Part shown: positions 17,389-64,000 of the stretch, one piece after another | Position numbering within the stretch: the first letter of the stretch is position 1 | Layout: the number at the start of each line of letters is the position of its first letter | Origin: Tetracentron sinense | Lineage: Eukaryota; Streptophyta; Magnoliopsida; Trochodendrales; Trochodendraceae | Direction of reading: 5' to 3' | Assembly: GCA_015143295.1 (NCBI GenBank) | Contig: CM026551.1 | Coordinates: forward strand, 13,751,827-13,815,826 | DNA: 64,000 bases | The notes under the pieces: generated by a model | Database searches by the model: none | Seen by the model: the letters and a program-made list of their open reading frames with translations, nothing else | What the model was told of the DNA's origin: nothing | Made by a program: the position numbers and the translations under genes

Positions 17389-20130
17389 TTCAATATCACA
17401 ATCCTAAACAGATAAATATGCACTTTGACTATTTAATATAACAATATAGTTCTGAGGGGTTTATGATCGGAGTCAATGGAATTTACAATTCAAGATCCAA
17501 TTCCAGTTTAGATATATGATCTGATGTTATATGGTATCAAACTGAGAAGAATTACAAGTTCCAAGTAGGCACCAAGGTCTCCATAAGAATAATGTCCTAA
17601 AGAGTTGGGACTTTCTTGGTTGCACACCACCTCTGCCATTGGAAAAGCAACGTACTAATTTGAAATCTTAGCCTTCACGATTAAATCTAAGGATTTCCTA
17701 GGGAGAAAATTACACATGTAAGAGTCAGATCTCAATTTCTTGGCACCTGGCCCTTGACCCTAACATATCAATCTCCTACTTTGATATTCCTACCTGAAAA
17801 GCAGTGCTGCTGAAATGAACAATAGATTATGATGAGGTAAGACCTCCATTTCTAAGCATCCAGGGTGTGCTAGAAAACCTGTAAAAAGAGAAGTATAAAA
17901 TTCCATTAGTTGACAAATAATAGATGGACATCTTTTTTTTTTATCAATAATAATAGATGGACATCTTAAATCAAGTATTATGATAGTATAATCCTTTAAG
18001 ACAGTAAAAATGGAACAGACAGCTTCTAGATTACTGATTGATCTCTACAAAGTTAAGGGATCTGAAAGACTAACAAAACAGTTACTATTCACCTTAAAGT
18101 CAACTTGATGGGGCCAAATCAAATACTTTGACATATATCTTCTTTTGCCTTCTTGCTAAAAGGAAAACTTGTTGCCAAAGAGCTCCAATCGGAACTACTG
18201 AAGGTAGTGCTGGACTGTTGTTGTGATCTTCTAGCAACATGCAAACATTTAGGGGATAAGTTGGCATCAATTTTGTTCATATAGTTATAATTCTAAACAA
18301 GTAAAGCTTTCTTTTAAAAATCCCATACCATAGACAATGGGCAGTGCGGAATCTGGACAGGATAAAGCTCCGCTCTATAACCTTGAAATCATAGTTTTAA
18401 TAAAGTCAAAGAAGCTTACAATCATTTCTTCAACAAAATCAAGACGCAGAGCTGCTAATCTGCGAGCATTCAATATAATATATTACCATTAAGATTATTA
18501 ACTAATACTTATGAAGATAAACACTTGATGTAGGAATGGACACCTTATAATTATATTTTCAAAGGAAACCAATGAGATATCCGTATTCCTCCATTTGCTG
18601 TTGCTATGCAGAATATAAGTTCACTTGAGCTGTCAGAAGCAACGTGCATCATACTTGCATTCTTGATCTTCTAGATATTGTCCTTATTTTTCAAATGGCC
18701 AGTTGAATTGGTTCTGCATTCATGATCAAAGAACATGATAATAGGATATGGTGTATTGCACAACTAATCATCAATTTGCAAAGACGGGATTTGGAAGTAA
18801 AATTTTTGTTGATACACACTTTGCAGCACATCAATCTTGGTGTCCTTTGCTCATGTAAAAAGTATATATGGGTTTGTTATATTGAACTAAACAGAATCTA
18901 CCATATTGGATTTGATGACATGCAAAATGAAAAAAAATAAATTGTACACACCTATGGGTAAGAATTAGTTAAGGAATTTTTGATAAATGACATGAACCAA
19001 AATTCTCTCCCTATAATTGAGAATTTACTCCTTTTTCTAGTTAAGTTTCTTTTTTTTCTCTGAAGCCAAGAAAACTTGTATCCTTCATAGCATTCAGAAG
19101 ATGGTAAATTGAATCTATGATGTTGTGCACCTGAAAAATAAGTATATAAAAAAAAAACAGTTTTTTTATTAGCAAACCGGTGCTGAACTATTTTATTTTG
19201 CTACACAAGACTAACCATAAGAAAGAACCTTAATTGCTCCTTCAGTATTGATGTAAAAAATAATCTTCTTTCAGGATTCCGAAAAGAGAAATAAGTGTAA
19301 GTTGCAAAACCAAACATTATATAAAAATGGTACTCATGGGGAACATCTAAATGAGGTCATTAGCGGAGCAGTAATCTTCATCAAAGACGACATAGAGACA
19401 AACAAAACCCAAGTAAAAATCCATTGATGGGATTCTGAATCTATTCTCTCTAATCAACAATAAAAGGAACATCTGATTGGACTGACTGAAAGGGGAAGTT
19501 TATTTGGGGGGGGGCGCATTTAGAGAGGATGAGACACGCGTATCTTCAGATTAATCAGTAATATAAACAATAATCAGACTACTAAGTAATCAAAATAGAT
19601 TATTAATTAAAATCTATATATATTAACTTAAAGCAACATTATTCACTAACTTATAGCGAATCAAAAATCTAGATTAACAAACATAACATACTGTTTATCT
19701 AATTTAAAGACAAACACATTAATATTAATTTAACAAACATTTAATTAACTAATTTATAGACCAACATCTAATCTAATACTAAGAAAATACATACGATAAC
19801 AAAAGAAAAAAATAAAAGGGTAATTCTTACCATGAGTGATGCCAGGAGCAAGGTGCAGCCATCCACAACAGCATAGACAAGAGAAAGGCAGCCGAGAGAA
19901 AGATAACATACATTTTATCTAATTTAAAGACAAACACATTAATATTGATTTAACGAACATTTTAATTAACTAATTTATAGACCAACATCTAATCTAATAC
20001 TAAGTAAAATATATATGATAACAAAAGAAATAAAATAAACAGGTAATTCTTACCGTGAGTGATGCCAGAAGCAAGGTGCAGCCATCCACAACAGCATAGA
20101 TAAGAGAAAGGCAGCCGAGAGCACGATAAA
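17389..20130 (-). pseudogene. VPS13-like duplicon P2, SHR-BD to E7
   Basis: Minus-strand exon-like blocks in order: E1 twice (20054-20128 and 19831-19905), E2 19228-19280, E3 18975-19132, E4 about 18548-18860 (SHR-BD, then KWRNxDISLVSFE), E5 about 18320-18462 (LAALRLDL), E6 18093-18214 and E7 17795-17879. E6 reads PALPSVVPIGALWQQVFLLA then RRQKKIYVKVFDLA, with CAG before it and AAG-GTGAAT after. E7 reads FSSTPWMLRNGGLTSS followed by a TGA. Breaks include the TAG in the IDxQL motif of E4 and a one-base loss near 18110 in E6 (DLAPIKLTL frame). Splice sites are largely intact, so this is a segmental copy. The 17389-18130 part is repeated at 1-725. Confidence 0.9.
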
Positions 20131-21889
20131 AAAAATTATAAGTTTCAAGTAAGACGCTAAAAATGAAATATAAAAGAAGAAAAAAAAGAAACAAGATAAA
20201 CGCAAGAAGGTTAATTAAAAGCAATGAAAAGATTCTAACCCTCTTCTCATTTGTTTTGTTGGATTGTATCTATATTGATAATTCATTCGTCTCTTAAACT
20301 TCGACTGAAACTCCTAATTCTGATTAACTTTTGTTGAAACTAAAAACATATAAAAATAAATAAATTTCAAAAGCTATGTGTAAGTAGAGAATTCAAAATT
20401 CTGATTGACATTTAATATTCTTGAAAAGAATAATAAAAAATTCAAAAACAAACCTTTTCTCAAATGATAGCAAGAATATTTTTATATCCCTTTCAAGAAG
20501 TTGATTAATCCCGCCTCGCAGATTCCAGATAGATCCCATGGTGTAATTTTAAAGTGCATGAGTACATATAAAACAGGGTCAAAGAAAATTAGCATTTTAC
20601 ATAGGCAATTTTGAAGAAAAAGAAAGAAAGTAAAAATGTAATAATCAATATGAGTACAATCGACTTCACCAAGTGCTTGTAAGAAAATACTTCACAATGT
20701 AAATTTAATGAAACATATAAGCACACACCCTACATATTAACCGTTCTTTTAAAACAACAAAGGAATGAATGAAAGCATACAAGCACAAGAAAGAAGAAGA
20801 AAAGGAATAACAAATAGGCCCAAAAAGTGAAAAAATGCAACACAAATGATGCTAACGATATGTATAGAAAAACTACCAACAAAGAATTACAGATGAACAA
20901 AATAGTTATTTAAAAAAACCGATCCAGAAAAAGAATTGCAAATAATGATCTTAGGAATAAACTAATATAAGGTTTTTTTTTTTTTGAGATAATGCAACTT
21001 AAACTCAGAGTCAATCCATATACTAAATAAATAACATATTTTCTTTATTTTGGTAACATAGTTAGAAATTTTAAATCAAGGTAAACATTTTTGGTACACA
21101 TATATTGTGCACATGAGATTTAGCATCATTCAAAATTCAGAAAACCTAAAAAAAAAATAATGGAAAGTAACTAAAACAGAGCCGTCACTTATTTTAATTT
21201 TAAGGGAGAATAATAACCCTAATCTTTTAAATAATAAGATTGATAAAAATAGAAATTTGGGTGAGATATTTGATTGAGCTAAGGGAAGGTATTAGGCACA
21301 CATAAACACATAAACACCTACCAAATGAGGTCATCTATTCTCTAAACTCACCCTACACAAATTTGCAAACAAAATTATAATTCTTAATGTGAGAAATGGT
21401 ATTAACAAACCATGACTTAAACATAAATATGCTAAAGAGATAATCAAATCAAGTTGTAAACAAGCATCAACTAAAAGATATAAATATAAGCAAACAAGCA
21501 ATTATCATGCATCACTTGAAACTAGAAACGTTTTAAATTCAAATAATAAATCCTGTAAAAGAAAAAAAAATTGGCTTTTTACCTTTTTGTGTGAAGGTTG
21601 CACCGCGGACTATTGCCTCGTATCTCGTATGATTGGAATGAAACTGTCGTACTTCAAAACCAAGCAGGCAAGCAGAGATCATGAATGTCGACACGATATC
21701 TCAAGGTATGAATGGAATGTAAGGATAAGATTGAGAATGTCCTGCTCCTCGCATTTTAATTTTTCGCATTAAATTTACTCAAAGAATCAATAAGTTGTGT
21801 GAAGCTTCGAAGTAGAGAGGTTAAAGATTGTTAAAAACTGTAAAGGGAACTTAAGTGAGGAGAACTACTGAATGGGAAGATGATGCACC
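20131..21889. other. Duplicon spacer with a single ~540-type unit
   Basis: AT-rich DNA between E1 of P2 and E11 of P3. A diverged ~540-bp-family unit lies at about 21570-21750 (TATTGCCTCGTATCTCGTAT). Its short plus-strand frame at 21587-21772 recurs at 34170-34355 and, inverted, at 61225-61410, because the duplicons are copies and not because it is a gene. Confidence 0.55.
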
Positions 21890-24800
21890 GCTAAGAATTC
21901 ATTTAATACACCATTGCTGTGTGAAGCTATACCCTTCTGTTGTATCTCCATTTTTGCAACAGCCTGGTCGTCGAATGTAAATGCAACAATACTCTAAAAG
22001 TAGAAACCTCTCTTAATATCAACCGTTAGAATTCACCCAATGTCATTAGACATTTAAACAACCTTGTGTGCAGCTTTACTGAATTACCTTGAGCGGCAGC
22101 AACACTTATGGCATAGACTGTATTACTAAGAAGACTTGTGGTGGTCCCTGGTGCCATTCTTGTAATGAGTCCAGTAGGGTTTTGACAAAAGAGAAGTTAA
22201 TTTCAATATTGTGACGTATGATTGTCTCATCATCCTGCTAGCAAGCTTTGATATTATGGATATTGTGCACCCACAAAATACCCTTCACAGTAACTGATAA
22301 GAAATCTTTGATGTCGATCCCAACATTCCTTGCAAATCCCAAAGGATTACCTATAACACCAGCATAACCAAATTCCTGCAATTTAAGAATTGTAAGAGAG
22401 TATATAAAACAAGCACAATTAATGAGCTTGGCAATACGATTTTTGAAATGGAAATTTAATGAATAGCTCCATAAGAGCAGTATTAGCTTATTGGACCCAT
22501 TCTCCTCACTCTCCCTTTTCTCACCCTCCTCTAACAACCAACTAAAAGTCTAAAACCCATCATCCAAGGCAAAGCGTTAAAATGCTTTCAAGGGATACGT
22601 CTTCTCACAGTCTCTCTCTCACCTTCTTGTATCTAATTAAGTGAAAACCCCGCCAAGGCAAAGGTTGCAATGATTTGAACCATATCCTCACACTCATTTC
22701 TTATACATTCTCTTTCACCTTCTTCTCCAACCACCAATAATAGGACATGTGTAATAATACACATAAACCCCTCCCAAGCTGCCACATATCCTCCCCCTTC
22801 CATGGCTCTAATGTAGTATAATATGCTAAATAGATAATCAAATGAAGTTATAAACAAGCATCAAATAAGAAATATAAAAGTAAGCAAACAAGCAACTATC
22901 ATGCATCAATTAGAATTAGAAACATCTCAAATTCAAATAAGAAACCATGCTAAAGAAAGACAACAATCAAGCATACAAAAGAAAAAAAAAAGACTTTTTA
23001 GTTGGGAGGGTCACACCTTCGAGGATTGCCTATGTATCTCGTAAGATTGGAATCAAGTTGTTGTAGTTCAAAAGCAAACAGGCAAACAAATATCATGATG
23101 GCTCACACGATATCTCAAGGTATGAATGGATATGATGGTATGGTGTGACCTCTCTTATGAGAGAGGTCGTGGGACCTAATCTCAATTGTCATGGCTTACA
23201 ATATTATCACTCCCCGCCACTCACAACTAGTCGATGATTGATGCTAACAGTAAGTCAATTATAATTCCATAAAAAAAAAAAAGGTAATTTCTGGGACAGA
23301 GGAATAGTATGGAGTTAAAGAGGTTTAAATAAAAAGAGGAAAGAGAAAATATCAGATTTTAAATAGGACAGAAAGAAGCATTTTAGTTTCTAAAAGGAGA
23401 GAAATATGAAATAGAGAGTTAAAAGACACTTTAGCTATAAGATGAATAGTTAAGATTTAAATAAATTACAATGGGTGAGAGAATAGAGGGAGTAACGTGT
23501 GGTCCCATACATTTTTGGAGCTCTAAAAGTATGAATTTTGTAAAATCTCATTTCTTATTTTTAATATTTGTTTTGATATGCAAGAACAATCATGTACCGA
23601 AAGTACTTCATGACATATATAAATTAACAAAAACAGAAAATAACTAAATAATAAAACCAATTTATCATTTTAGACATTCTAGCATATTCCATTAAAAAGA
23701 AAGCATGAAAGTACATTGTCCAATGAAAAAATTACATCAATAGTAAAATTTAAAAAGGAAATAGCATTGAAAAATTGCATACTTAAGAAAGAGGAAGGAA
23801 AGGTAAGCAATTGAAGGCTCAACTCTAAACCTTTTTTCTCATTATCTGAAGAATCAGATGATCTTATTTTAAAATACATATAAAAAAAAAGACAAACAAG
23901 TGGAAGAAACATAAAGCAAAAGTAAATACATACTTCAATTGTTCATACTAATATATTTTTTTCATCCTTTATCAAATCAAATACATTGATCTTATTCAAA
24001 CAATAAAACAAACATAAGAAAAAATTAAGAAGCGTGCATACTTCAATAGCTCATAGTATCAATAAGAGAGAAGTTGGGGAAGCGTGAAGAAGTTTTACAG
24101 AATTTACCGAATGATATGAATATATTTGAAATGTATCAAAGATCCAAATAACATATCACTTCTTGTTAAATAGTGCATCAAGGCTGTTTGGAACTATGTT
24201 GCATACTTGCATATGCCTCCCATGATAAGGAACCTCAAATAAGAATAAATTTTATGGAAACTGCATTCTAATTAATTAAGCAACAATGTAAGATGGTGAC
24301 TAATTGTACACCAGAATTTGAAGATCTAAACTGCATTCTAGATTACTGATTGATCTCTACAAAGATAAGGGATCTCACACACTAACAAAATAGTTACAAT
24401 TCACCTTAAAGTCAACTTGATGGGCCCAAATCAAATACTTCGACATATATCTTCTTTTACCTTCTTGTTAAAAGGAAAACCTGTTGCCAAGGAGTTCCAA
24501 TCGGAATTACTGAAGGCAGTGCTGGACTGCTGCTGTGATCTTCTAGCAACATGTAAACATTTAGGGGATAAGTTGGCCTCAATTTTGTTCACATAGTTAT
24601 AATTCTAAACAAGTAAAGCTTTCTTTTAAAAATCTCATACCATAGACAATGGGTAGTGTGGAATCTGGACATGATAAGGCTCTGCTCTATAACCTTGAAA
24701 TCACAGTGCTAATAAAGTCAAAGAAGCTTACAATCATTTTTCATCAAGGTCAAGACGGAGAGCTGCTAATTTGCGAGCATTCAATATAATATATTATCAT

Positions 24801-25814
24801 TAAGATTATTAACTAAAACTTATGACGATAAACACTTGATGTAGGAATGGACACGTTATAATTATATTTTCAAAGGAAACCAATGAGATATCCTTATTCC
24901 TCCATTTGCTGTAGCTAAGCAGAGTATAGGTTCACTTGAGTTGCCAGGAGCAATGTGCATCATACTTGCATTCTTGATCTTCTAGATATTGTCCTTATTT
25001 TTCAAATGGCCTGTTGAATTGGTTTGCATTCATGATCAAAGAACATGATAATAGGATATGGTGTATTGCACAACTAATCATCAATTTGCAAAGACGGGAT
25101 TTGGAAGTAAAATTTTTGTTGATACACACCCTGCAGCACATCAATCTTGGCGTCCTTTGCTCATGCAAAAAGTATATATGTGTTAGTTATATTGAACTAA
25201 ACAGAATCTACCATATTGGATTTGATGACATGCGAAATGAAAAAAAAAATTGTACACCTGTGGGTAAAGAATTAATTAAGGAATTTCTGATAAGTAACAT
25301 GAACCAAAATTCTCTCCCTGTAATTGAGAATTTTCTCCTTTTTTTGGTTGAGTTCCTTTTTTTTCTCTGAAACCAAGAAAGCTTGTATCCTTCATAGCAT
25401 TCAGAAGATGGTAAATTGAATCTATGATGTTGAGCACCTAAAAAATAAGTATATAAAAAAAAAAAACAGTTTTTTTATTAGCAAACCAGAGTTGAACTAT
25501 TTTATTTTGCTAAACAAGACTAACCATAAGAAAGCACCTTAATTGCTCCTTCAGTATGGATGGAGAAAAATAATCTTCTTTCAGGAATCTAAAAACAGAA
25601 ATAAGTGTAAGTTGCAAAACCAAACATTATATAAAAATGGTACTCATGGGGAACATTTGAATGAGGTCATCAGCGGAGCAGTAATCTTCATCAAAGAAGA
25701 CGTAGAGATAAACAAAACCCAAGTAAAAATCATTTGATGGGATTCTGAATCTATTCTCTCTACTCAGCAACAAGAGGAACATCTGATTGGATTGATTGAA
25801 AGGGGAAGTTTAAT

Positions 25815-25843
25815 TGGGGGTGGGGGTATGTGGGGGGTGGGGG
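25815..25843 (+). other. G-quadruplex motif in P3
   Basis: Runs of 5, 5, 6 and 5 G are separated by T, TATGT and T, a textbook four-tract quadruplex pattern on the strand opposite the VPS13-like exons. Equivalents: 12059, 32088, and C-rich at 56887 and 63494. Confidence 0.75.
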
Positions 25844-25933
25844 CGCATTTAGAGAGGAGGAGAGGCACGTATCTTCAGATTAATCCGTAATATAAACAAT
25901 AATCAGATTACTAATTAATCAAAATAGATTATT

Positions 25934-25961
25934 AATTAACATATATATATATATATATATA
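25934..25961. repeat. (AT)n microsatellite
   Basis: An uninterrupted run of AT dinucleotides is present in P3. Other copies have only a short version at the same place (for example 19615 and 32220), so this is a copy-specific expansion. Confidence 0.85.
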
Positions 25962-28900
25962 TTAACTTAAAGCTACATTATTCACTAACTTATAACGAGA
26001 CAAAAATCTAGATTAACAAACATAACATACTGTTTATCTAATTTAAAGACAAACACATTAATATTGATTTAACAAACATTTAATTAACTAATTTATAGGT
26101 CAACATCTAATCTAACACTAAGTAAAATACATATGATAACAAAAGAAATCAAATAAAAGGGTAATTCTTACCGTAAGTGATGCCAGGAGCAAGGTGCAGC
26201 CATCCACAACAGCATAGACAAGAGAATGGCAGCCAAGAGCAAGATAACATACTGTTTATCTAATTTAAGGACAAACACATTAATATTGATTTAACAAACA
26301 TTTAAATTAACTAATTTATAGACCAACATCTAATCTAATACTAAGTAAAATACATATGATAACAAAAGAAATAAAATAAAAAGGTAATTCATACCGTGAG
26401 TGATGTCAGGAGCAAGGTGCAGCCATCCACAACAGCATAGACAAGAGAAAGGCAGCCGAGAGCAAGATAAAAAAAATTTTATGGCTTTGATTTCATGTTT
26501 CAAGTAAGACCCTAAAAATGAAATATAAAAGAAGAAAAAAACGACAAGATAAACGCAAGAAGGTTAAATGGTTAAAAGCAATGAAAAGATTCTAACCCTC
26601 TTCTCATTTGTTTTGTTGGATTGTATCTATATTGATAATTCATTCGTCTCTTAAACTTCGACTGAAACTCCTAATTCTGATTCACTTTTGTCGAAACTAA
26701 AAACATATAAAAACAAATAAATTTCGAAAGCTATGTATAAATAGAGAATTCAAAATTTTGATTGGCATTAAATATTCTTGAAAAGAATAATAAAAAAATT
26801 CAAAAACAAACCTTTTCTCAAATGATAGCAAGAATATTCTTATATCCTCTTTTAAGAAGTTGATTAATCCCGCCTCGCAGTTTCTAGATAGATCCCATGG
26901 TGCAATTTTAAAGTGCGTGAGTACATATAAAACAGGTTCAAAGAAAATTAGCATTTTACATAGGCAATTTTGAAGAAAGAGATAGGAAGTCAAAATATAA
27001 TGATCAATATGAGTACAATCGACTTCACCAAGTGTCTGTAAGAAAATACTTCAAAATGTAAATTTAATAAAACATATAAGCACACACCCTACATATTAAC
27101 CCTTCTTTTGAAACAACAAAGGAATGAATGAAAGCATAAAAGCACTAGAAAGAAGGAGAAAAGGAATAACAAATAGGCCTCAAAAGTGAAAAAATGCAAC
27201 ACAAATGATGCTAACGAAATGTATAGAAAAACTACCAACAAAGAATTGCAGATGAACGAAATAGTTACTTAAAAAAACAGATCCACAAAAAGAATTGCAA
27301 ATAATGATCTTAGGAATAAACCAATATAAGTTTTTTTCTTTTTGAGATAATGCAACTTAAGCTCAGTGTCGATCCATATACTAACTAAATAGCATATTTT
27401 TTATTTTGGTAACGTAATTAGAAAATTTAAATTAAGGTAAACATTTTTGGTACACATATATTGTGGACATGAGATTTAGCATCATTCAAAATTCAAAAAC
27501 CCTAAAAAAAATAATGGAAAGTAACTAAATGCAACAATACTCTAAAAGTAGAAACCTCTCTTAATATCAACCGTTAGAGTTCACCCAGAGGATGCCCGAA
27601 TGCCATTAGACAGGTAAACAACCTTGTGTGCAGCTTTACTGAATTACCTTGAGCGGCAGCATCACTTATGGCATAGACTGTATTACTAAGAAGACTTGCG
27701 GTCCCTGATGCCATTCTTGTAATGAGTCCAGTAGGGTTTTGACAAAACAGAAGTTAATTTCAAAATTGTGACATATGATTGTCTCATGATCCTGCTGGCA
27801 AGCTTTGATATTATGGATATTGTGCACCTGCAAAATACCCTTGGCAGTAACTGATAAGAAATCTTTGATGTCGATCCTAACATTCCTTGCAAATCCCATA
27901 GGATTACCTATAACACCAACAGAACCAAATTCCAGCAATTTAACAATTGTAAGAGAGTATATAAAAGAAGTATAATTAATGAGCTTGGCATTACGATTTT
28001 TGAAATGGCAATTTAATGAATAGCTCCATGATAGCAGTATTAGCTTATTGGACCCATCTCCTCACTCCCCCTTTTCTCACCCTCCTCTAACAACCAACTA
28101 AAAGTCTAAAACCCATCATCCAAGGCAAAGCGTTACAATGCTTTGATGGGATACGTCTTCTCATGGTCTCTCTCTCAGCTTCTTGTATCCAATTAAGGGA
28201 AAACCCGGCCAAGGCAAAGGTTGCAATGATTTGAACCATATTCTCACACTCATTTCTTATAAATTCTCTTCCACCTTCTTCTCCAACCACCAATAATAGG
28301 ACATGTGTAATAATACACATAAACCCCTCCCAAGCTGCCACATATCCTCCCCCTTTAATGACTTTAATGTAGTATAATATGCTAAATAGATAATCAAATC
28401 AAATTAAAAACAAGCATCAAATAAGAAACATAAAAGTAAGCAAACAAGCAACTATCATGCATCAATTGGAATTAGAAACATCTCAAATTCAAATAAGAAA
28501 CCATGTTAAAGAAAGACAATAATGAAGCATGCAAAAGAAAAAAAATGACTTTTTAGTTGTGAGGGTCACACCTTCGAGGATTGCCTATGTATCTCGTAAG
28601 ATTGGAATCAAATTGTCGTAGTTCAAAAGCAAACACGCAAACAAATATCATGATGGCTCAAACGATATCTCAAGGTATGAATGGATATGATGGTATGGTG
28701 TGACCTCTCTTATGAGAGAGGTCGTGAGACCTAATCCCAATTGTGATGTCTTACAAGAGTGTCACTCCCCGCCACTCACAACTAGTCGATGATTGATGCT
28801 AACAGTAGGTCAATTATAATTCCAGCAAAAAAAAAAGGTAATTTCTTGGAGAGAGGAATAGTATGGAGTTAAAGAGGTTTAAATAAAAAGAAGAAAGAGA

Positions 28901-32087: not shown

Positions 32088-32118
32088 GGGGGTGGGGGTA
32101 TGTGGGGGGGGGGGGGGG
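32088..32118 (+). other. G-rich tract in P4
   Basis: GGGGGTGGGGGTATGT is followed by a run of about 16 G. Same site as the P3 quadruplex motif, with length variation typical of slippage. Confidence 0.7.
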
Positions 32119-37568: not shown

Positions 37569-37578
37569 TATTACTCCC
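37569..37578 (+). repeat. Poly-C tract
   Basis: A short homopolymer run, matching a longer C run at about 30471-30488 and a G run at about 52267-52280 in the mirror copy. Length differs between copies, as expected of slippage. Confidence 0.7.
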
Positions 37579-47110: not shown

Positions 47111-47118
47111 GTAGTGAC

Positions 47119-52183: not shown

Positions 52184-54410
52184 ACTCCATATCCTTGATC
52201 AAATTTTTATGTAACACATGTACCCTGATGTTCTTCAATCCCTTCTATTATTTGGTGGCTCAAGAAGGGGGGGGGGGGGGTAATATGTTCCAACTTTACT
52301 CTTTGGATCTTGCACATATGTTCGTCATAGCATTACTTTTCTGATTTTCCAGATTCAAATTAGCTGCTCCTTTATCTTTTAAACTCTAATTTTTGCTATG
52401 TTTTTCAGTGTATGATTGGACCAATTTTACATCAATTCATCTAATGTTAGCAGGCTATAACAGTGGCTTCCTCTATTATTTGTAATTGAGTTATTAGCCT
52501 CCTCTAATTTTTTTTTAAGTCATTTGATCTTATAATTTCTAATATAGTATATTTCTGATATATATTATAGTTTACAATTTCATGGAGTCCTTAGCTTTGC
52601 TCTGATTTAAGAATTATACTCTCGAGGACACATAAAGTAAAGCATGTATTATATATGTATGGTTATAATTTAAAACCTTCTACAATGTAATTTCTTGAAA
52701 AACGAAAGTAGGGCCTCAAGTATGTTTATGTTTTGTGAACTTGGTCACTGTAAAGTAAGTGGACTTTTATGGAATTTAATGACTTTCTGAACAAGAGAAG
52801 AACAAACGAAGATGTTTGTAACTTTTATTATTCTCTCTCTATAGATCTTCAAATTCTGGTGTACAATTGGGTTAGCTCTTTTGACATGTATACAAATTAT
52901 TCACCATCTTATATTGTTGCTTGATTAATTAGAATGCAGTTTCCATAAAATTAATTCTTATTTGAGGTCCCTTATCATGGGAGGCATATGCAAGTATGCA
53001 ACATAGTTCCAAACAGCCTTGATGCACTATTTAACAAGAACTGATATGTTATTTGGATCTTTGATATATTTCAAATATATTCTTATCATTCGGTAAATTC
53101 TGTAAAACTTCTTCACGCTTCCACAACTGCTCTCTTATTGAAACTATGAGCTATTGAAGTATGCATGTTTCTTAATTTTTTCTTATGTTTGTTTTATTGT
53201 TTGAATAAGATCAATGTATTTGATTTGATAAAGCATGAAAAAAATATATTAGTATGAACGATTGAAGTATGTATTTACTTTTGCTTTATGTTTCTTCCAC
53301 TTGTTTGTCTTTTTTTTATATGTATTTGAAAATAAGATCATCTGATTCTTTAGATAATGAGAAAAAAGGTTTAGAGTTGAGCCTTCAATTGCTTTCCTTT
53401 CCTTCCTCTTTCTTGAGTATGCGATTTTTCAATGCTATTTCCTTTTTAAATTTTATTGTTTATGTAATTTTTTCATTGGACAATGTACTTTCATGCTTTT
53501 TTTTTAATGGAATATGCAAGAATGTCTAAAATGATAAATTGGTTATATTATTTAGTTATTTTCTGTTTTTTTTAATTTATATATGTCATGAAATACTTTT
53601 GGTACATGTTTGTTCCTGCATTTCAAAACAAATATTAAAAATTAGAAATGACATTCTACAAATTTCATACTTTTAGAGCTCCAAAAATGTATGGGACCAC
53701 ACGTTACTCCCTCTATTCTCTCACCCATTGTAATTTATTTAAATCTTAACTATTTATCTTATAGCTAAAGTGTCTTTTAACTCTCTTTCATATTTCTCTC
53801 CTTTTAGAAACTAAAATGCTTCTTTCTGTCTTATTAAAAATCTGATATTTTCTCTTTCCTCTTTTTTATTTAAACCTCTTTAACTCCATACTATTCCTCT
53901 CTCCAAGAAATTACCTTTTTTTTTTGCTGGAATTATAATTGACCTACTGTTAGCATCAATCATCGACTAGTTGTGAGTGGCGGGGATTGACACTCTTGTA
54001 AGACATCACAATTGGGATTAGGTCTCACGACCTCTCTCATAAGAGAGGTCACACCATACCATCATATCCATTCATACCTTGAGATATCGTTTGAGCCATC
54101 ATGATATTTGTTTGCTTGTTTGCTTCTGAACTACGACAATTTGATTCCAATCTTACGAGATACATAGGCAATCCTCGAAGGTGTGACCCTCACAACTAAA
54201 AAGTCATTTTTTTTCTTTTGCATGCTTCATTATTGTCTTTCTTTAACATGGTTTCTTATTTGAATTTGAGATGTTTCTAATTCCAATTGATGCATGATAG
54301 TTGCTTGTTTGCTTACTTTTATGTTTCTTATTTGATGCTTGTTTTTAATTTGATTTGATTATCTATTTAGCATATTATACTACATTAAAGTCATTAAAGG
54401 GGGAGGATAT

Positions 54411-54665
54411 GTGGCAGCTTGGGAGGGGTTTATGTGTATTATTACACATGTCCTATTATTGGTGGTTGGAGAAGAAGGTGAAAGAGAATTTATAAGAAAT
54501 GAGTGTGAGAATATGGTTCAAATCATTGCAACCTTTGCCTTGGCCGGGTTTTCCCTTAATTGGATACAAGAAGCTGAGAGAGAGACCATGAGAAGACGTA
54601 TCCCATCAAAGCATTGTAACGGTTTGCCTTGGATGATGGGTTTTAGACTTTTAGTTGGTTGTTAG
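54411..54665 (+). other. Unassigned frame family B (AAWEGFMCIITHVLLLVVGE)
   Basis: An 84-codon frame with a hydrophobic segment (FMCIITHVLLLVV), a charged stretch (GEEGEREFIRNECENM) and a second hydrophobic stretch (IIATFALAGFSLNW). Copies: 60145-60414 (plus), 28087-28341 and 22633-22857 (minus), and a broken one near 35200-35420. It always precedes E9 by about 150-450 bp. I do not recognise it. It reads more like protein than frame A, but no splice or start evidence decides the matter. Confidence 0.4.
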
Positions 54666-56274
54666 AGGAGGGTGAGAAAAGGGGGAGTGAGGAGATGGGT
54701 CCAATAAGCTAATACTGCTATCATGGAGCTATTCATTAAATTGCCATTTCAAAAATCGTAATGCCAAGCTCATTAATTATACTTCTTTTATATACTCTCT
54801 TACAATTGTTAAATTGCTGGAATTTGGTTCTGTTGGTGTTATGGGTAATCCTATGGGATTTGCAAGGAATGTTAGGATCGACATCAAAGATTTCTTATCA
54901 GTTACTGCCTGGGGTATTTTGCAGGTGCATAATATCCATAATATCAAAGCTTGCCAGCAGGATCATGAGACAATCATATGTCACAATTTTGAAATTAACT
55001 TCTGTTTTGTCAAAACCCTACTGGACTCATTACAAGAATGGCATCAGGGACCGCAAGTCTTCTTAGTAATACAGTCTATGCCATAAGTGATGCTGCCGCT
55101 CAAGGTAATTCAGTAAAGCTGCACACAAGGTTGTTTACCTGTCTAATGGCATTCGGGCATCCTCTGGGTGAACTCTAACGGTTGATATTAAGAGAGGTTT
55201 CTACTTTTAGAGTATTGTTGCATTTAGTTACTTTCCATTATTTTTTTTTAGGGTTTTTGAATTTTGAATGATGCTAAATCTCATGTCCACAATATATGTG
55301 TACCAAAAATGTTTACCTTAATTTAAATTTTCTAATTACGTTACCAAAATAAAAAATATGCTATTTAGTTAGTATATGGATCGACACTGAGCTTAAGTTG
55401 CATTATCTCAAAAAGAAAAAAACTTATATTGGTTTATTCCTAAGATCATTATTTGCAATTCTTTTTGTGGATCTGTTTTTTTAAATAACTATTTCGTTCA
55501 TCTGCATTTTTTTGTTGGTAGTTTTTCAATACGTTTCGTTAGCATCATTTGTGTTGCATTTTTTCACTTTTTGGGCCTATTTGTTATTCCTTTTCTTCTT
55601 CTTTCTTGTGCTTTTATGCTTTCATTCATTCCTTTGTTGTTTCAAAAGAACGGTTAATATGTAGGGTGTGTGCTTATATGTTTAATTAAATTTACATTGT
55701 GAAGTATTTTCTTACAGGCACTTGGTGAAGTTGATTGTACTCATATTGATTATTATATTTTTACTTCCTATGTCTTTCTTCAAAATTGCCTAGGTAAAAT
55801 GCTAATTTTCTTTGAACTTGTTTTATATGTACTCATGCACTTTAAAACTGCACCATGAGATCTATCTAGAAATTGCGAGGCGGGATTAATCAACTTCTTA
55901 AAAGGGGATATAAGAATATTCTTGCTATCATTTGAGAAAAGGTTTGTTTTTGAATTTTTTTATTATTCTTTTCAAGAATATTTAACGTCAATCAAAATTT
56001 TGAATTCTCTATTTACACATAGCTTTTGAAATTTATATGTTTTTAGTTTCGACAAAAGTGAATCAGAATTAGGAGTTTCAGTCGAAGTTTAAGAGACGAA
56101 TGAATTATCAATATAGATACAATCCAACAAAACAAATGAGAAGAGGGTTAGAATCTTTTCATTGCTTTTAACCATTTAACCTTCTTGCGTTTATCTTGTC
56201 TTTTTTTTCTTCTTTTATATTTCATTTTTAGGGTCTTACTTGGAACTTGAAATCAAAGCCGTATAATTTTTTTG

Positions 56275-58174
56275 ATCTTCCTCTCGGCTGCCTTTCTCTT
56301 GTCTATGCTGTTGTGGATTGTTGCACCTTGCTCCTGACATCACTCACAGTAAGAGTTACCTTTTTATTTTATTTCTTTTGTTATCATATGTATTTTACTG
56401 AGTATTAGATTAGATGTTGGTCTATAAATTAGTTAATTAAAATGTTTGTTAAATCAATATTAATGTGTTTGTCTTTAAATTAGATAAACAGTATGTTATC
56501 TTGCTCTTGGCTGCCATTCTCTTGTCTATGCTGTTGTGGATGGCTGCACCTTGCTCCTGGCATCACTCACGGTAAGAATTACCCTTTATTTTATTTCTTT
56601 TGTTATCATATGTATTTTACTTAGTATTAGATTAGATGTTGGTCTATAAATTAGTTAATTAAATGTTTGTTAAATCAATATTAATGTGTTTGTCTTTAAA
56701 TTAGATAAACAGTATGTTATGTTTGTTAATCTAGATTTTTGATTCGTTATAAGTTAGTGAATAATGTAGCTTTAAGTTAATATATATATTTTTTAATTAA
56801 TAATCTATTTTGATTAATTAGTAATCTGATTATTGTTTATATTACTGATTAATTTGAAGATACGCGCCTCTCCTCCTCTCTAAATGCCCCCCCCCCCCCC
56901 CCACATACCCCCACCCCCAAATAAACTTCCCCTTTCAATCAATCCAATCAGATGTTCCTCTTGTTGTTGATTAGAGAGAATAGATTCAGAATCCCATCAA
57001 AGGATTTTTACTTGGGTTTTTTTTATCTCTACGTCATCTTTGATGCAGATTACTGCTCCGCTAATGACCTCATTCAGATGTCCCCCATGAGTACCATTTT
57101 TATATAATGTTTGGTTTTGCAATTACACCTATTTCTGTTTTCAGAATCCTGAAAGAAGATTATTTTTCTCCATCTATACTGAAGGAGCAATTAAGGTGCT
57201 TTCTTATGGTTAGTCTTGTGTAGCAAAATAAAATATTTTCGCTCCGGTTTGCTTATAAAAAAACTTTTTTTTTTATATACTTATTTTCAGGTGCTCAACA
57301 TCATAGATTCAATTTACCATCTTCTGAATGCTATGAAGGATACAAGTTTTCTTGGCTTCAGAGAAAAAAAAGGAACTTAACCAGAAAAAGGAGAAGATTC
57401 TCAATTACAGGGAGAGAATTTTGGTTCATGTCATTTATCATAAATTCCTTAATTAATTCTTTACCCACAGGTGTACACTTTTTTTTTTCATTTCGCATGT
57501 CATCAAATCCAATATGGTAGATTCTGTTTAGTTCAATATAACAAACACATATATTTTTTTTGCATGAGCAAAGGACGCCAAGATTGATGTGCTGCAGAGT
57601 GTGTATCAACAAAAATTTTACTTCCAAATCCCGTCTTTGCAAATTGATGATTAGTTGTGCAATACACCATATCCTATTATCATGTTCTTTGATCGTGAAT
57701 GCAGAACCAATTCAACAGGCCATTTGGAAAATAAGGACAATATCTAGAAGATCAAGAATGCAAGTATGATGCACGTTGCTTCTGACAGGTCAAGTGAACC
57801 TATATTCTGCTTAGCTACAGCAAATGGAGGAATAAGGATATCTCATTGGTTTCCTTTGAAAATATAATTATAATGTGTCCATTCCTACATCAAGTGTTTA
57901 TCTTCATAAGTTTTAGTTAATAATCTTAATAATAATATATTATATTGAATGCTCGCAGATTAGCAGCTCTGCGTCTTGACCTTAATGAAAAATGATTGTA
58001 AGCTTCTTTGACTTTATTAGCACTGTGATTTCAAGGTTATAGAGTAGAGCCTTATCATGTCTAGATTCCACACTACCCATTGTCCATGGTATGGGATTTT
58101 AAAAGGAAGCTTTACTTGTTGAGAATTATAACTATGTGAACAAAATTGAGGCCAACTTATCCCCTAAATGTTTG
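56275..58174 (+). pseudogene. VPS13-like duplicon, right arm copy 2, 5' part (mirror of P3)
   Basis: Plus-strand blocks: E1 twice (56275-56350, 56503-56572), E2 57145-57195 (TTTTCAG acceptor; PERRLFFSIYTEGAIK), E3 57291-57470 (TTTTCAG acceptor; VLNIIDSIYHLLNAMKDTSF), E4 57559-57872 and E5 57959-58097. E4 reads FA, TGA at 57565-57567, AKDAKIDVLQSVYQQKF, FQIPSLQIDD, TAG at 57652-57654, LCNTPYPIIMFFDREC, and later SEPIFCLAT and DISLVSFE after a frame change. It is the clearest view of the SHR-BD region here. The C-rich complement of the quadruplex tract is at 56887-56918. The copy continues after the insertion at 58175. Confidence 0.9.
56887..56918 (-). other. G-quadruplex motif, right arm copy 2
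   Basis: A long C run, then ACATA, CCCCC, A, CCCCC on the plus strand: the complement of the tract at 25815-25843. It lies between E1 and E2. Confidence 0.7.
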
Positions 58175-58448
58175 TACCCGGGGCTAGAGTGAGCTGAGGG
58201 GGGACAGCGTAAGTGAGTGAATGTGTGTAAGCCCAGTCAAACATGATTGTTCTAGGCGGGGCGGGCCACCCACCTTCGAATGGTGTTGGTCCTACGGACC
58301 GTGAACGGATTCGCCTCTGGCCTCTGGGCACGTCGGAACCGCATGGGTTCACCGGGGTGGAGCACGGTCCGCCAAAATCAGCATAGGTTAGGTGCTATTG
58401 ATGGAACATGGTAAGCCTATCTTTCTCCATATGGAAGTGTTGCGGGCG
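58175..58448. other. GC-rich foreign insertion, probably organellar (NUMT)
   Basis: A 274-bp block of markedly higher GC interrupts the intron before E6. Left of it is CCTAAATGTTTG and right of it CATGTTG. The uninterrupted sequence (CTAAATGTTTGCATGTTGC) is seen at 51.93 kb and in the left arm. There is no target duplication, no loss at the site and no poly(A). Phrases such as GGACAGCGTAAGTGAGTGAA, GTAAGCCCAGTCAAAC and GGACCGTGAACGGATTCG resemble plant mitochondrial group II intron DNA. That identification is from memory and needs a search. The clean join fits repair-mediated capture of organelle DNA. It is absent from the mirror copy, so it is later than the inverted duplication. Confidence 0.55.
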
Positions 58449-61109
58449 CATGTTGTTAGAAGATCACAGCAGCAGTCCAGCACTTCCTTCAGTAGTTCGG
58501 ATTGGAGCTCCTTGGCAACAAGTTTTCCTTTTAGCAAGAAACCAAAAGAAGATATATGTCGAAGTATTTGATTTGGCCTCATCAAGTTTACTTTAAGGTG
58601 AATAGTAACTATTTTGGTAGTCTATCAGATCCCTTAACTTGGTAGAGATCAATCAGTAATCTAGAATGCAGTTTAGATATTCAAATTTTGGTGTACAATT
58701 AGTCACCATCTTACATTGTTGCTTAATTAATTAGAAAGCAGTTTACATAAAATTTATTCTTATTTGAGGTTCCTTATCATGGGAGGCATATGCAAGTATG
58801 CAACATAGTTCCAAACAGCCTTGATGCACTATTTAACAAGAACTGATATGTTATTTAGATCTTTGATAGATTTCAAATATATTCTTATCATTCGGTAAAT
58901 TCTGTAAAACTTCTTCACACTTCCCCAACCTCTCTCTTATTGAAACTATGAGCTATTGAAGTATGCATGTTTCTTAATTTTTTCTTATGTTTGTTTTATT
59001 GTTTGAATAAGATCAATGTATTTGATTTGATAAAGCATGAAAAAAATGTTTTAGTATGAACGATTGAAGTATGTATTTACTTTTGCTTTATGTTTCTTCC
59101 ACTTGTTTGTCTTTTTTTTATATGTATTTTAAAATAAGATCATCTGATTCTTCAGATAATGAGAAAAAAGGTTTAGAGTTGAGCCTTCAATTGCTTTCCT
59201 TTCCTTCCTCTTTCTTAAGTATGCGATTTTTCAATGCTATTTCCTTTTTAAATTTTACTGTTGATGTAATTTTTTCATTGGACAATGTACTTTCATGCTT
59301 TCTTTTTAATGGAATATGCAAGAATGTCTAAAATAATAAATTGGTTTTATTATTTAGTTATTTTCTGTTTTTGTTAATTTATATATGTCATGAAGTACTT
59401 TCGGTACATGATTGTTCTTGCATATCAAAACAAATATTAAAAATAAGAAATGACATTCTACAAAATTCATACTTTTAGAGCTCCAAAAATGTAGTGGACC
59501 ACATGTTACTCCCGCTATTCTCTCACCCATTGTAATTTATTTAAATCTTAACTATTCATCTTATAGCTAAAGTGTCATTTAACTCCCTCTTTCATATTTC
59601 TCTCCATTTAGAAACTAAAGTGCTTCTTTCTGTCCTATTAAAAATCTGATATTTTCTCTTTCCTCTTTTTATTTAAACCTCTTTAACTCCATACTATTCC
59701 TCTCTCCCAGAAATTACCTTTTTTTTTTGCTGGAATTATAATTGACCTATTGTTAGCATCAATCATCGACTAGTTGTGAGTGGCGGGGAGTGACACTCTT
59801 GTAAGACATCACAATTGGGATTAGGTCCCACGACCTCTCTCATAAGAGAGGTCACACCATACCATCATATCCATTCATACCTTGAGATATCGTGTGAGCC
59901 ATCATAATATTTGTTTGCCTGCTTGCTTTTGAACTACGACAACTTGATTCTAATCTTACGAGATACATAGGCAATCCTCGAAGGTGTGACCCTAATAACT
60001 AAAAAGTCTTTTATTTTTTTCTTTTGCATGCTTGATTGTTGTCTTTCTTTAGCATGGTTTCTTATTTTAATTTGAGATGTTTCTAATTCCAATTGATGCA
60101 TGATAGTTGCTTGTTTGCTTACTTTTATATTTCTTATTTGATGCTTGTTTATAACTTCATTTGATTATCTATTTAGCATATTATACTACATTAGAGCCAT
60201 GGAAGGGGGAGGATATGTGGAAGCTTGGGAGGGGTTTATGTGTATTATTACACATGTCCTATTATTGGTGGTTGGAGAAGAAGGTGAAAGAGAATGTATA
60301 AGAAATGAGTGTGAGGATATGGTTCAAATCATTACAACCTTTGCTTTGGCGGGGTTTTCACTTAATTGGATACAGGAAGGTGAGAGAGAGACCGTGAGAA
60401 GACATATCCCTTAAAAGCATTTTAACGCTTTGCCTTGGATGATGGGTTTTAGACTTTTAGTTGGTTGTTAGAGGAGGGTGAGAAAAGGGAGAGTGAGGAG
60501 AATGGGTCCAATAAGCTAATACTGCTATTATGGAGCTATTCATTAAATTTCCATTTCAAAAATCGTATTGCCAAGCTCATTAATTATACTTCTTTTATAT
60601 ACTCTCTTACAATTGTTAAATTGCTGAAATTTGGTTCTGTTGGTGTTATAGGTAATCCTATGGGATTTGCAAGGAATGTTGGGATCGACATCAAAGATTT
60701 CTGATCAGTTACTGCCAAGGGTATTTTGCGGGTGCACAATATCCATAATATCAAAGCTTGCCGGCAGGATCATGAGACAATCATGTCACAATTTTGAAAT
60801 TAACTTCTCTTTTGTCAAAACTCTACTGGACTCATTACAAGAATGGCACCAGGGCCCGCAAGTCTTCTTAGTAATACAGTCTATGCCATAAGTGATGCTG
60901 CCGCTCAAGGTAATTCAGTAAAGCTGCACACAAGGTTGTTTACAGGTCCAATGACATTGGGTGAGTTCTAACGGTTGATATTGGGAGAGGTTTCTACTTT
61001 TAGAGTATTGTTGCATTTACATTTGACGACCAGGCTCTTGCAAAAATGGAGATACAACAAAAGGGTATAGCTTCACACAGCAACGGTGTATTAAATGAAT
61101 TCTTAAAGG
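58449..61109 (+). pseudogene. VPS13-like duplicon, right arm copy 2, 3' part (mirror of P3)
   Basis: Plus-strand blocks: E6 58476-58597 (PALPSVVRIGAPWQQVFLLA then RNQKKIYVEVFDLA; CAG acceptor, AAG-GTGAAT donor, shared one-base loss near the end), unassigned frames A at 59071-59331 and B at 60145-60414, E9 60627-60731 (GSVGVIGNPMGFARNVGIDI, then KDF and a TGA at 60702-60704), E10 60820-60909 (GLITRMAPGPASLLSNTVYA) and E11 61003-61109 (TTTTAG acceptor; SIVAFTFDDQALAKMEIQQK). The coding similarity stops after NEFLK. The remaining VPS13 C-terminal part (usually LTGLLQSPI and on) is absent from every copy. Confidence 0.9.
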
Positions 61110-62879
61110 TACATCATCTTCCCATTCAGTAGTTCTCCTCACTTAAGTTCCCTTTACAGTTTTTAACAATCTTTAACCTCTCTACATCAAAGCTTCACAC
61201 AACTTATTGATTCTTTGAGTAAATTTAATGCGAAAAATCAAAATGCGGGGACCAGGACATTCTAAATCTCATCCTTACATTCCATTCATACCTTGAGATA
61301 TCGTGTCGACATTCATGATCTCTGCTTGCCTGCTTGGTTTTGAAGTACGACAGTTTGATTGCAATCATACGAGATACGAGGCAATAGTCCGCGTTGCAAC
61401 CTTCACACAAAAAGGTAAAAAGCCAATTTTATTTTTCTTTTACAAGATTTATTATTTGAATTTAACACGTTTCTAGTTTCAAGTGATGCATGATAATTGC
61501 TTGTTTGCCTATTTTTATATCTTTTAGTTGATGCTTGTTTACAACTTGATTTGATTATCTCTTTAGCATATTTATGTTTAAGTCATAGTTTGTTAATACC
61601 ATTTCTCAAATTAAGAATTATAATTTTGTTTGCAAATTTGTGTAGGGTGAGTTTAGAGAATAGATGACCTCATTTCGTAGGTGTTTATGTGTGCCATGTG
61701 TGCCTAATACCTTCCCTTAGCTCAATCAAATATCTCACCCAAATTTCTATTTTTATCAATCTTATTATTTAAAAGATCAGGGTTATTATTCTCCCTCAAA
61801 ATTAGAATAAGTGACGGCTCTGTTTTAGTTACTTTCCATTATTTCTTTATTAGGTTTTCTGAATTTTGAATGATGCTAAATCTCATGTCCACAATATATG
61901 TGTACCAAAAATATTTACCTTGATATAAATTTTCTAACTATGTTACCAAATTAAAAAAAAATATGTTATTTAGTTAGTATATGGATTGACTCTGAGTTTA
62001 AGTTGCATTATCTCAAATAAAAAAAACTTATATTAGTTTATTCCTAAGATCATTATTTGCAATTCTTTTTGTGGATCTGTTTTTTTAAATAACTATTTTG
62101 TTCATCTGCAATTCTTTGTTGGTAGTTTTTCTATACATTTCGTTAGCATTATTTGTGTTGCATTTTTTCACTTTTTGGGCCTATTTGTTATTCATTTTCT
62201 TCTTCTTTCTTGTGCTTATATGCTTTCATTCATTCCTTTATTGTTTTCAAAGAACAGTTAATATGTAGGGTGTGTGCTTATATGTTTCATTAAATTTACA
62301 TTGTGAAGTATTTTCTTACAAGCACTTGGTGAAGTCGATTGTACTCATATTGATTATTATATTTTTACTTCCTATCTCTTTCTTCAAAATTGCCAATGTA
62401 AAATGCTAATTTTCTTTGAACCAGTTTTATATGTACTCATGCACTTTAAAACTACACCATGGGATCTATCTAGAAACTGCGAGGCGGGATTAATCAACTT
62501 CTTAAAAGGGGATTAAGAATATTCTTGCTATCATTTGAGAAAATGTTTGTTTTTGAATTTTTTATTATTCTTTTCAAGAATATTTAATGTCAATCAAAAT
62601 TTTGAATTCTCTATTTACACATAGCTATTGAAATTTATTTATTTTTATAAGTTTTTAGTTTCGACAAAAGTGAATCAGAATTAGGAGTTTCAGTCGAAGT
62701 TTAAGAGACGAATGAATTATCAATATAGATACAATCCAACAAAACAAATGAGAAGAGGGTTGGAATCTTTTCATTGCTTTTAACCATTTAACATTCTTGC
62801 GTTTATCTTGTTTCTTTTTTTTCTTCTTTTATTTTTCATTTTTAGGGTCTTACTTGAAACTTGAAACTTATAATTTTTT
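61110..62879. other. Duplicon spacer, right arm
   Basis: Mirror of about 20131-21889. Holds an inverted single ~540-family unit at about 61240-61430 and otherwise AT-rich DNA. No gene is supported. Confidence 0.55.
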
Positions 62880-64000
62880 TTATCTTGCTCTCTGCTGCCT
62901 TTCTCTTATCTATGCTGTTATGGATGGCTGCACCTTGCTTCTGGCATCACTCACAGTAAGAATTACCCTTTTATTTTATTTCTTTTGTTATCATATGTAT
63001 TTTACTGAGTATTAGATTAGATGTTGGTCTATAAATTAGTTAATTAAAATGTTCGTTAAATCAATATTAATGTTTTTGTCTTTAAATTAGATAAACAGTA
63101 TGTTATCTTGCTCTCGGCTGCCTTTCTCTTGTCTATGTTGTTATGGATGGCTGCACCTTGCTCCTGGCATCACTCACAGTAAGAATTACCCGTTTATTTG
63201 ATTTCTTTTGTTATCGTATGTATTTTACTTAGTATTAGATTAGATGTTGGTCTATAAATTAGTTAATTAAATGTTTGTTAAATTAATATTAATGTGTTTG
63301 TCTTTAAATTAGATAAACAGTATGTTATGTTTGTTAATCTAGATTTTTGATTCGTTATAAGTTTGTGAATAATGTTGCTTTAAGTTAATATATATAGATT
63401 TTAATTAATATTATATTTTGATTAGTTAGTAATCTGATTATTGTTTATATTACTGATTAATATGAAGATACGCGTCTCTCCTCCTCTCTAAATGCCCCCC
63501 CCCCCCCCCCCACATACCCCCACCCCCAAATAAACTTCCCCTTTCAGTTAGTCCAATTAGATGTTCCTCTTGTTGTTGATTAGAGAGAATAGATTCAAAA
63601 TCCCATCAAAGGATTTTTACTTGGGTTTTGTTTATCTCTATATCGTCTTTGATGAAGATTACTGCTCCGCTAATGACCTCATTCAGATGTTCCCCATGAG
63701 TACCATTTTTATATAATGTTTGGTTTTGCAACTTACACTTATTTCTATTTTCAGAAGCCTGAAAAAAGGTTATTTTTCTCCATCCATACTGAAGGAGCAA
63801 TTAAGGTGCTTTCTTATGGTTAGTCTTGTGTAGCAAAATAAAATAGTTCAGCTCCGGTTTGGTAATAAAAAAACTTTTTTTTTTTATATGCTTATTTTTC
63901 AGGTGCTCAACATCATAGATTCAATTTACCATCTTCTGAATGCTATGAAGGATACAAGTTTTCTTGGCTTCGGAGAAAAAAAAAGAACTTAACCAGAAAA
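62880..64000 (+). pseudogene. VPS13-like duplicon, right arm copy 3, cut by window end (mirror of P2)
   Basis: Plus-strand blocks: E1 twice (62880-62956, 63107-63180), E2 63755-63805 with a TTTTCAG acceptor, and E3 from 63903 to the edge with an acceptor (TTTTTCAG) and the same VLNIIDSIYHLLNAMKDTSF reading. The C-rich quadruplex complement is at 63494-63527. SHR-BD should follow beyond the window. Confidence 0.85.

What the first reader, a model, noticed from the sequence alone, without database searches (positions are those of the whole stretch)
18950..64000. Very large inverted duplication of VPS13-fragment arrays
At least 12.5 kb at 51.45-64 kb is the reverse complement of about 31.3-19 kb, around a spacer of about 20 kb. 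Points pair at a near-constant sum (about 82.75-83.0 kb), and a 98-codon frame is identical in both arms. Head-to-tail copies on one side facing their mirror on the other is unusual for a plant pseudogene cluster. It could promote hairpins, ectopic recombination or gene conversion. It could also be an assembly artefact, since the right arm is cut by the window.
Basis: seen in the sequence. Interest (0 to 1): 0.75.

Follow-up and report, generated by a model that had tools for sequence, protein, structure and literature searches.

The report
Inverted copy of decayed gene-fragment array
A stretch of plant-like DNA carries a row of broken, repeated gene pieces and, some 13 kb further on, a mirror-image copy of part of that row, one stretch of which looks recently overwritten so that it is almost identical again; such structures are known from plants, and this one looks like an ordinary though well-preserved case.

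Summary
The inverted duplication is present in the sequence: 19033-31300 pairs with 64000-51448 (12,224 aligned bases, 390 mismatches). It copies part of a head-to-tail array of units of roughly 6-7 kb: left units C, D and the first ~520 bp of E are mirrored as a stub, F' and G'. The non-array spacer is 13.4 kb, not 20.

Divergence is uneven. The outer 8.2 kb differ by 4.3%, a 3.9-kb tract (27269-31157 / 55484-51598) by 0.44%, and the last ~145 bp before the junction by ~14% plus small indels. A homogenised tract bounded on both sides by more divergent sequence is best read as arm-to-arm gene conversion.

At the junction (51448) the arm meets, across four bases, the end of a second duplication inside the spacer. 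That suggests a template-switching origin, but the mutation-rich 145 bp could equally be unpolished assembly at a false join.

"VPS13" found no support in my family or structure searches. The one identifiable piece of the unit is a broken Argonaute PAZ fragment (weak but specific), and the identical 98-codon frame overlaps it antisense.

Closest precedents: the soybean I locus and the poplar and willow sex-region inverted repeats. New member of a known kind; any silencing function is untested.

The parts
11243..16491 (+). Copy B: older, interrupted member of the left array (matching pieces 86-93% to other copies, with foreign or tandem-repeat sequence between them)
18189..24308 (+). Unit C of the left array (from 19033 on it pairs with G')
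24501..30778 (+). Unit D of the left array (pairs with F'); carries an internal ~0.8-kb deletion at 27526-27529
30778..37997 (+). Unit E, last left unit; only its first ~520 bp (30778-31300) are mirrored on the right
37537..37827 (+). Broken Argonaute PAZ-domain fragment in unit E (in-frame stops); the recognisable match is 37609-37821
   Evidence: Pfam PAZ E=7.9e-5, below the gathering score; PDB: 8 of 8 matches Argonaute, best E=0.0031; tblastn with the AGO1 stretch E=0.002
30433..30781 (+). Same fragment in unit D, shorter (no Pfam hit of its own)
   Evidence: DNA 88% to E over 30433-30638 and 93% over 30673-30781; tblastn with the E copy E=8.5e-23; no Pfam hit
51974..52317 (-). Same fragment in the right arm, F'
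37998..51447 (.). Spacer without array sequence; CpG observed/expected 0.80 against 0.39-0.42 in the arrays
42712..44531 (+). Spacer segment A-B, duplicated at 47119-51443
47119..51443 (+). Second copy A'-B', split by an insertion; ends 4 bases before the right arm
48233..50742 (.). 2.5-kb insertion in A'-B', ends TGTAGAGACCC...GGGTCGTTACA with an imperfect 5-bp flanking repeat (CCTGT/CTTGT): solo-LTR-like, inferred
51444..51447 (.). Four bases (CCGT) at the junction between B' and the right arm (CCG would match B with one mismatch, so possibly fewer)
51448..51598 (-). Junction-proximal end of the right arm: ~14% mismatches plus small indels, private to this copy
51598..55484 (-). Homogenised tract, right side (99.56% to 27269-31157)
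27269..31157 (+). Homogenised tract, left side; crosses the D/E unit boundary
51448..58173 (-). Right arm: stub of E (51448-51977) and unit F'
58175..58448 (.). 274-bp stretch present in the right arm only, at the F'/G' boundary
58449..64000 (-). Right arm: unit G', cut by the window edge

Best explanation
A non-coding tandem array of decayed gene-fragment units gave rise to an inverted partial copy of itself. Proposed order: (1) a unit of about 6-7 kb, ending in an Argonaute PAZ fragment, was amplified head to tail (shown: C, D, E and the older B). (2) At nearly the same time, units C-D and the first ~520 bp of E were copied in reverse to the far side of a 13.4-kb spacer, most likely by replication with template switching: the fork copied spacer segment A-B a second time, then jumped to the opposite strand inside unit E (inferred from A'-B' ending 4 bases before the arm, and from the arm being cut inside a unit where the left copies run on). 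(3) The arms then diverged to 4.3% (shown). (4) More recently one arm overwrote the other over 3.9 kb by arm-to-arm gene conversion (inferred from a bounded 0.44% tract). The arrays are CpG-depleted, consistent with long-term cytosine methylation. I infer no protein function.
For: Arms and their colinearity. The left copies C, D, E, the right copy F' further in, and the older B all run through the site where the arm is cut. Change points at 27269 and 31157: mismatches 353/8198, 17/3884 and 20/142. In the tract, D/F' is 99-100% per 500 columns while other pairs stay at 92.7-98%, so the site is not merely slow-evolving. The tract crosses the D/E unit boundary in register with the arms. Trees: C+G' apart from D, E and F' (bootstrap 96 outside, 100 inside the tract); D+F' 77 outside, 100 inside. 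A'-B' ends at 51443, the arm begins at 51448. CpG observed/expected 0.39 and 0.42 in the arrays against 0.80 in the spacer; C/T-type differences between the outer arms at CG 33/345, CHG 35/565, CHH 119/4227 (Fisher CG vs CHH 1.5e-8).
Against: Outside the tract the pairing D-F' is only weakly supported: 7 sites for, 3 and 1 for the two alternatives. The ~0.8-kb deletion shared by D and F' lies inside the converted tract, so it is not independent evidence. The spacer duplication differs by 3.8% (A) and 7.6% (B), not one clean age. The CG excess of differences is also seen in the spacer pair A/A' (11/79 vs 11/606) and not in B/B' (5/91 vs 18/305), so it is not special to the arms. The mutation-rich junction stretch could be sequencing noise. 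No reads, relatives or outgroup genome were available.
Confidence: 0.6

Rival explanations
1. Assembly artefact: the two array segments exist but the contig joins them wrongly at about 51.45 kb, or the near-identical 3.9-kb tract is one locus walked twice by the assembler.
For: The 145 bp at the junction carry 20 mismatches and 4 gaps in 142 aligned bases, or about ten small gaps under laxer gap costs, private to this copy: 23 private events in a 120-column window, against at most 7 in 804 overlapping windows of the other five copies. That mixture looks like unpolished long-read consensus. Repeats of this kind do defeat assemblers: passages of PMC6710647 say earlier soybean assemblies had gaps or inversions at the I locus.
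Against: 17 mismatches against 4 gap events in the tract is not what one locus walked twice should give. The outer 8.2 kb differ by 4.3%, so the right arm is a separate sequence. The last ~25 bases of the arm and the adjoining B' show no such noise. Error-prone replicative repair also puts mutations near breakpoints (passages of PMC4352052).
Confidence: 0.22
2. Not a duplication but an inversion: one longer tandem array was cut and its right half flipped, so F' and G' are ordinary members of the old array.
For: Outside the tract the branches joining D, E and F' are very short, as expected if all arose in one amplification. The arm is cut inside a unit.
Against: C+G' and D+F' pair in mirror order. 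An inversion should leave the other part of the cut unit at its second breakpoint; none was seen in the window, though that breakpoint may lie outside. It does not by itself explain the spacer duplication ending at the junction.
Confidence: 0.13
3. A silencing locus like the soybean I locus: the array is transcribed, the two orientations give double-stranded RNA, and the siRNAs act on the intact Argonaute gene from which the PAZ fragment came.
For: Same form as the I locus (two 10.91-kb inverted clusters around 5.7-5.9 kb; passages of PMC6710647 and PMC3804491). CpG depletion of the arrays.
Against: No transcript or small-RNA data; arms about 20 kb apart. The Argonaute piece is about 0.3-0.45 kb of each unit and is absent from C and, by alignment, from G'. 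CpG depletion also follows from ordinary repeat methylation.
Confidence: 0.05

Closest known systems
Soybean I locus (CHS1-3-4 / CHS4-3-1 inverted clusters)
   Same: Clusters of related gene copies in inverted orientation around a spacer of several kb; total size of tens of kb (passages of PMC6710647, PMC3804491).
   Different: There the arms are described as identical and carry CHS genes that yield siRNAs; here the arms differ by 4.3% outside one tract, the units are decayed, and siRNAs are untested.
Palindromes of the Salix purpurea W sex region
   Same: Large inverted repeats in a plant with a limited (3-kb) stretch showing gene conversion between arms; an AGO4 homologue lies in one palindrome (passages of PMC7023750).
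   Different: Arms there average over 99% identity across 20 kb and hold genes; here there is no evidence of a sex chromosome, the organism is unknown, and the spacer is larger than the 2.6 kb of W.P1.
Poplar Y-region inverted repeats of PtRR9/ARR17 fragments
   Same: Truncated gene fragments arranged as several inverted arms (passages of PMC7465354).
   Different: The source gene there is a response regulator with a proposed silencing role; here the one recognised fragment is Argonaute-like and no role is known.
Template-switching rearrangements with inverted segments (FoSTeS/MMBIR; DUP-TRP/INV-DUP)
   Same: Adjacent duplicated and inverted segments meeting at a junction with a few extra bases; base changes near breakpoints reported (passages of PMC4352052).
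   Different: Those are recent human events seen in patients; here the event is old and its mechanism inferred from anatomy.

Membership tests
Inverted segmental duplication | Two arms with long colinear reverse-complement identity around a spacer | tested here: met
Inverted repeat with arm-to-arm gene conversion | A stretch of arm identity far above the flanks while other copies at the same positions stay divergent | tested here: met
Inverted repeat with arm-to-arm gene conversion | Concerted change relative to a related species | not testable with these tools
   no relative or genome held
siRNA-producing inverted repeat (I-locus type) | Inverted clusters of gene copies | tested here: met
   the gene copies here are decayed fragments
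siRNA-producing inverted repeat (I-locus type) | Transcription and small RNAs from the arms | not testable with these tools
   no expression data
VPS13 gene fragments | Similarity to VPS13/chorein family profiles | tested here: not met
   12 Pfam searches returned no VPS13 or chorein family; not every copy was scanned on both strands; PDB searches of one unit frame and one open frame none
Argonaute gene fragment | PAZ-domain similarity | tested here: inconclusive
   Pfam PAZ E=7.9e-5 but 23.0 bits against a cut-off of 28.8; 8 of 8 PDB matches Argonaute, best E=0.0031; one copy only (E)
FoSTeS/MMBIR-type rearrangement | Compound junction joining duplicated and inverted segments with few or no shared bases | tested here: met

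The most novel reading that the evidence does not exclude
The arrays are a self-directed silencing locus built from fragments of RNA-silencing genes. If the PAZ piece is from AGO7 and the minus-strand piece from VPS13 (both sub-assignments recalled, not shown), each unit joins fragments of two genes that one paper places in the same tasiRNA pathway (passages of PMC13157975: VPS13 co-localises with AGO7, RDR6 and SGS3), and the inverted copy could feed siRNAs back on that pathway, with gene conversion keeping a 3.9-kb stretch of the arms matched.
Probability: 0.03. Interest if true: 0.8.

Novelty: new member of a known kind. Interest (0 to 1): 0.3.

Why it matters
It is a readable case in which tandem amplification, an inverted copying event with a second duplication ending at the same junction, and a later bounded conversion tract can be separated in one 64-kb stretch. 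If the junction is confirmed by reads, it would show how inverted gene-fragment arrays, which in soybean and poplar are linked to gene silencing, come about and are kept similar. If not, it shows how a mis-join in an array can imitate one.

Tried and rejected
Tried without result: tRNA and Rfam scans, no hit. NaN for the organism: no whole genome is held for this window, so no relatives could be compared; the phage, plasmid, E. coli, viral-contig and prokaryote collections were not searched because the window is eukaryotic. PDB search of one whole unit frame: no match. PDB search of the 131-aa frame that resembles VPS13: three matches, E 0.62 to 1.1, none VPS13.

Considered and rejected: a transposon reading of segment A-B as the reason why B' ends at the junction (no matching flanking repeats seen on inspection; not tested against a TE library); slow evolution as the cause of the 99.56% tract (other copy pairs at the same positions are 92.7-98%); an ancient divergent copy as the source of the 145-bp junction stretch (its changes are private to it and the other copies agree with one another). 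My first count of sites joining D and F' (by 1000-column blocks) mixed converted and unconverted sequence; recounted outside the tract it is 5 sites, against 4 for the strongest conflicting pair (E+G'), with C+G' 12. The report uses the recount.

Pfam matches not taken further, at the E-values printed: Ilm1 0.061, PGP_phosphatase 0.4; zf-RVT 0.024, Cep192_D4 0.014; Pyridox_oxase_2 0.091; DUF7587 0.065; CDtoxinA 2.4e-5; OPA1_C 0.26; RNA12 0.11, VGCC_beta4Aa_N 1.1.
Full report
What was checked. Self-comparison of the window finds the reported inverted repeat: 24555-31300 pairs with 58173-51448 and 19033-24553 with 64000-58449. The near-constant coordinate sum is right, and its step from about 82.74 to 83.02 kb is explained by 274 bp present only in the right arm (58175-58448). 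The 98-codon frame is identical in DNA on both sides. Two details change: the right-hand part of the '20-kb spacer' begins only at 37998, because 31301-37997 is the rest of a left-hand unit, and the arms are far from evenly alike.

Anatomy. The left side holds three head-to-tail units (C 18189-24308, D 24501-30778, E 30778-37997) and an older interrupted one (B, about 11.2-16.5 kb). The right side holds, in reverse, the first ~520 bp of E, then F', then G', which the window edge cuts. The mirrored order is therefore E-start, D, C. Outside the homogenised tract, a tree joins C with G' apart from D, E and F' (bootstrap 96), and D with F' more weakly (77); inside the tract both are 100. Site counts outside the tract agree: for C+G' 12, D+F' 5, E+G' 4, F+G 3, E+F 2, D+G 1, D+E 1. 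The inverted copy thus arose close in time to the tandem amplification, and D+F' ancestry outside the tract is only modestly supported. The ~0.8-kb deletion that D and F' share lies inside the tract and may have been carried over by conversion.

Three levels of divergence. Along the arms, mismatches are 353 of 8198 (4.31%) in the outer part, 17 of 3884 (0.44%) in a tract from 27269 to 31157, and 20 of 142 (14.1%) in the last stretch before the junction. The change point at 27269 raises the log-likelihood by 54.4, against at most 8.5 in 200 shuffles. At the same unit positions the other pairs of copies stay at 92.7-98%, so the tract is not a slow region. It runs through the D/E boundary in register with the arms. 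This is what gene conversion between arms would leave. Donor and recipient cannot be told apart. With a rate of 2.5e-9 per site and year (the poplar value quoted in a passage of PMC7023750; the organism here is unknown), the arms would be about 8.6 and the tract about 0.9 million years old: an illustration, not a date.

The junction. Unit sequence begins at 51448 inside a unit; C, D, E, B and the other right-hand copy all run on through that point, so the right arm is the truncated partner. To its left stand four bases (51444-51447) and then the end of A'-B' (47119-51443), a second copy of spacer segment A-B (42712-44531), itself split by a 2.5-kb insertion with solo-LTR-like ends. That a duplication ends where an inverted copy starts fits replication with two template switches. 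The divergence of A/A' (3.8%) and B/B' (7.6%) brackets that of the arms without matching it. Passages of PMC4352052 describe such rearrangements and base changes at their junctions in human patients. Against this stands the 145-bp stretch next to the junction: private changes and small indels, 23 events in one 120-column window, against at most 7 in 804 overlapping windows of the other copies. Error-prone repair and unpolished assembly both predict it. I cannot separate the two, and the assembly reading keeps 0.22.

What the units are. Twelve Pfam searches over most of the window, with stops written as X, returned no VPS13 or chorein family. Parts of units C and E and most of the right arm were not scanned on both strands, although unit D was scanned on both. 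A minus-strand stretch present in the copies resembles plant VPS13 in my memory only; its PDB search gave no VPS13. What does match is the end of unit E: Pfam PAZ at E=7.9e-5, below the curated cut-off; 8 of 8 PDB matches Argonaute, best E=0.0031, among them plant AGO10 at 0.1. The next + frame gave 6 matches, none Argonaute, and one minus frame none; the remaining frames were not searched against the PDB. The AGO1 stretch finds the same place as its best hit in the window (E=0.002), while its reversed version finds nothing better than E=8.6. In D and F' the fragment is shorter and gives no family hit of its own. The motif looks most like AGO7 from memory. The identical 98-codon frame runs antisense across the end of this fragment into the next unit and is no evidence of a gene. 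Unit D was otherwise without significant matches in six frames; a LINE reverse transcriptase lies outside the arms.

Methylation. CpG observed/expected is 0.39 (left array) and 0.42 (right array) against 0.80 in the spacer and 0.54 in the left 18 kb; C/T-type differences between the outer arms are commonest at CG (33/345), then CHG (35/565), then CHH (119/4227). This is consistent with long methylated repeats. It is not proof of small-RNA action: the spacer pair A/A' shows the same excess (11/79 vs 11/606) and B/B' does not (5/91 vs 18/305).

Comparison. From passages (not whole papers): the soybean I locus is two 10.91-kb inverted CHS clusters around 5.7-5.9 kb that give siRNAs (PMC6710647, PMC3804491); the willow W region has palindromes with a 3-kb stretch of conversion and an AGO4 homologue (PMC7023750); the poplar Y region has five inverted arms of truncated response-regulator copies (PMC7465354). 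The form is therefore known. My eight literature searches listed no paper whose title or shown abstract describes this locus; that is no proof of absence. Verdict: an ordinary kind of plant structure in a well-preserved state, with an unresolved question about its junction.

Noticed in passing
5913-7126: Remains of a LINE-type reverse transcriptase (Pfam RVT_1 E=6.4e-11), the longest stop-free stretch of the window (221 aa) lying in it.
   Followed up: no
40018-40410: A 393-bp near-palindrome (86.6% self-complementary) in the spacer, MITE-like.
   Followed up: no
3165-5977 and 15276-16491: Tandem-like repeats that also resemble ~0.3-kb internal repeats of the array units at 74-78%.
   Followed up: no
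50789-51016: A minus-strand reading with several stop codons gave a weak Pfam CDtoxinA match (E=2.4e-5); probably chance, not pursued.
   Followed up: no
1-541 and 17388-17934: A 547-bp repeat at 95.6%, suggesting that the array or its flank extends beyond the left end of the window.
   Followed up: no
31278-31900 and 64000-63390: Around this part of the unit E and G' are closer (97.4%) than C and G' (94.7%): possibly a second, smaller exchange.
   Followed up: no
19679-20129, 26022-26470, 32289-32732, 62880-63328: A 223-bp sequence repeated twice in tandem inside the units.
   Followed up: no
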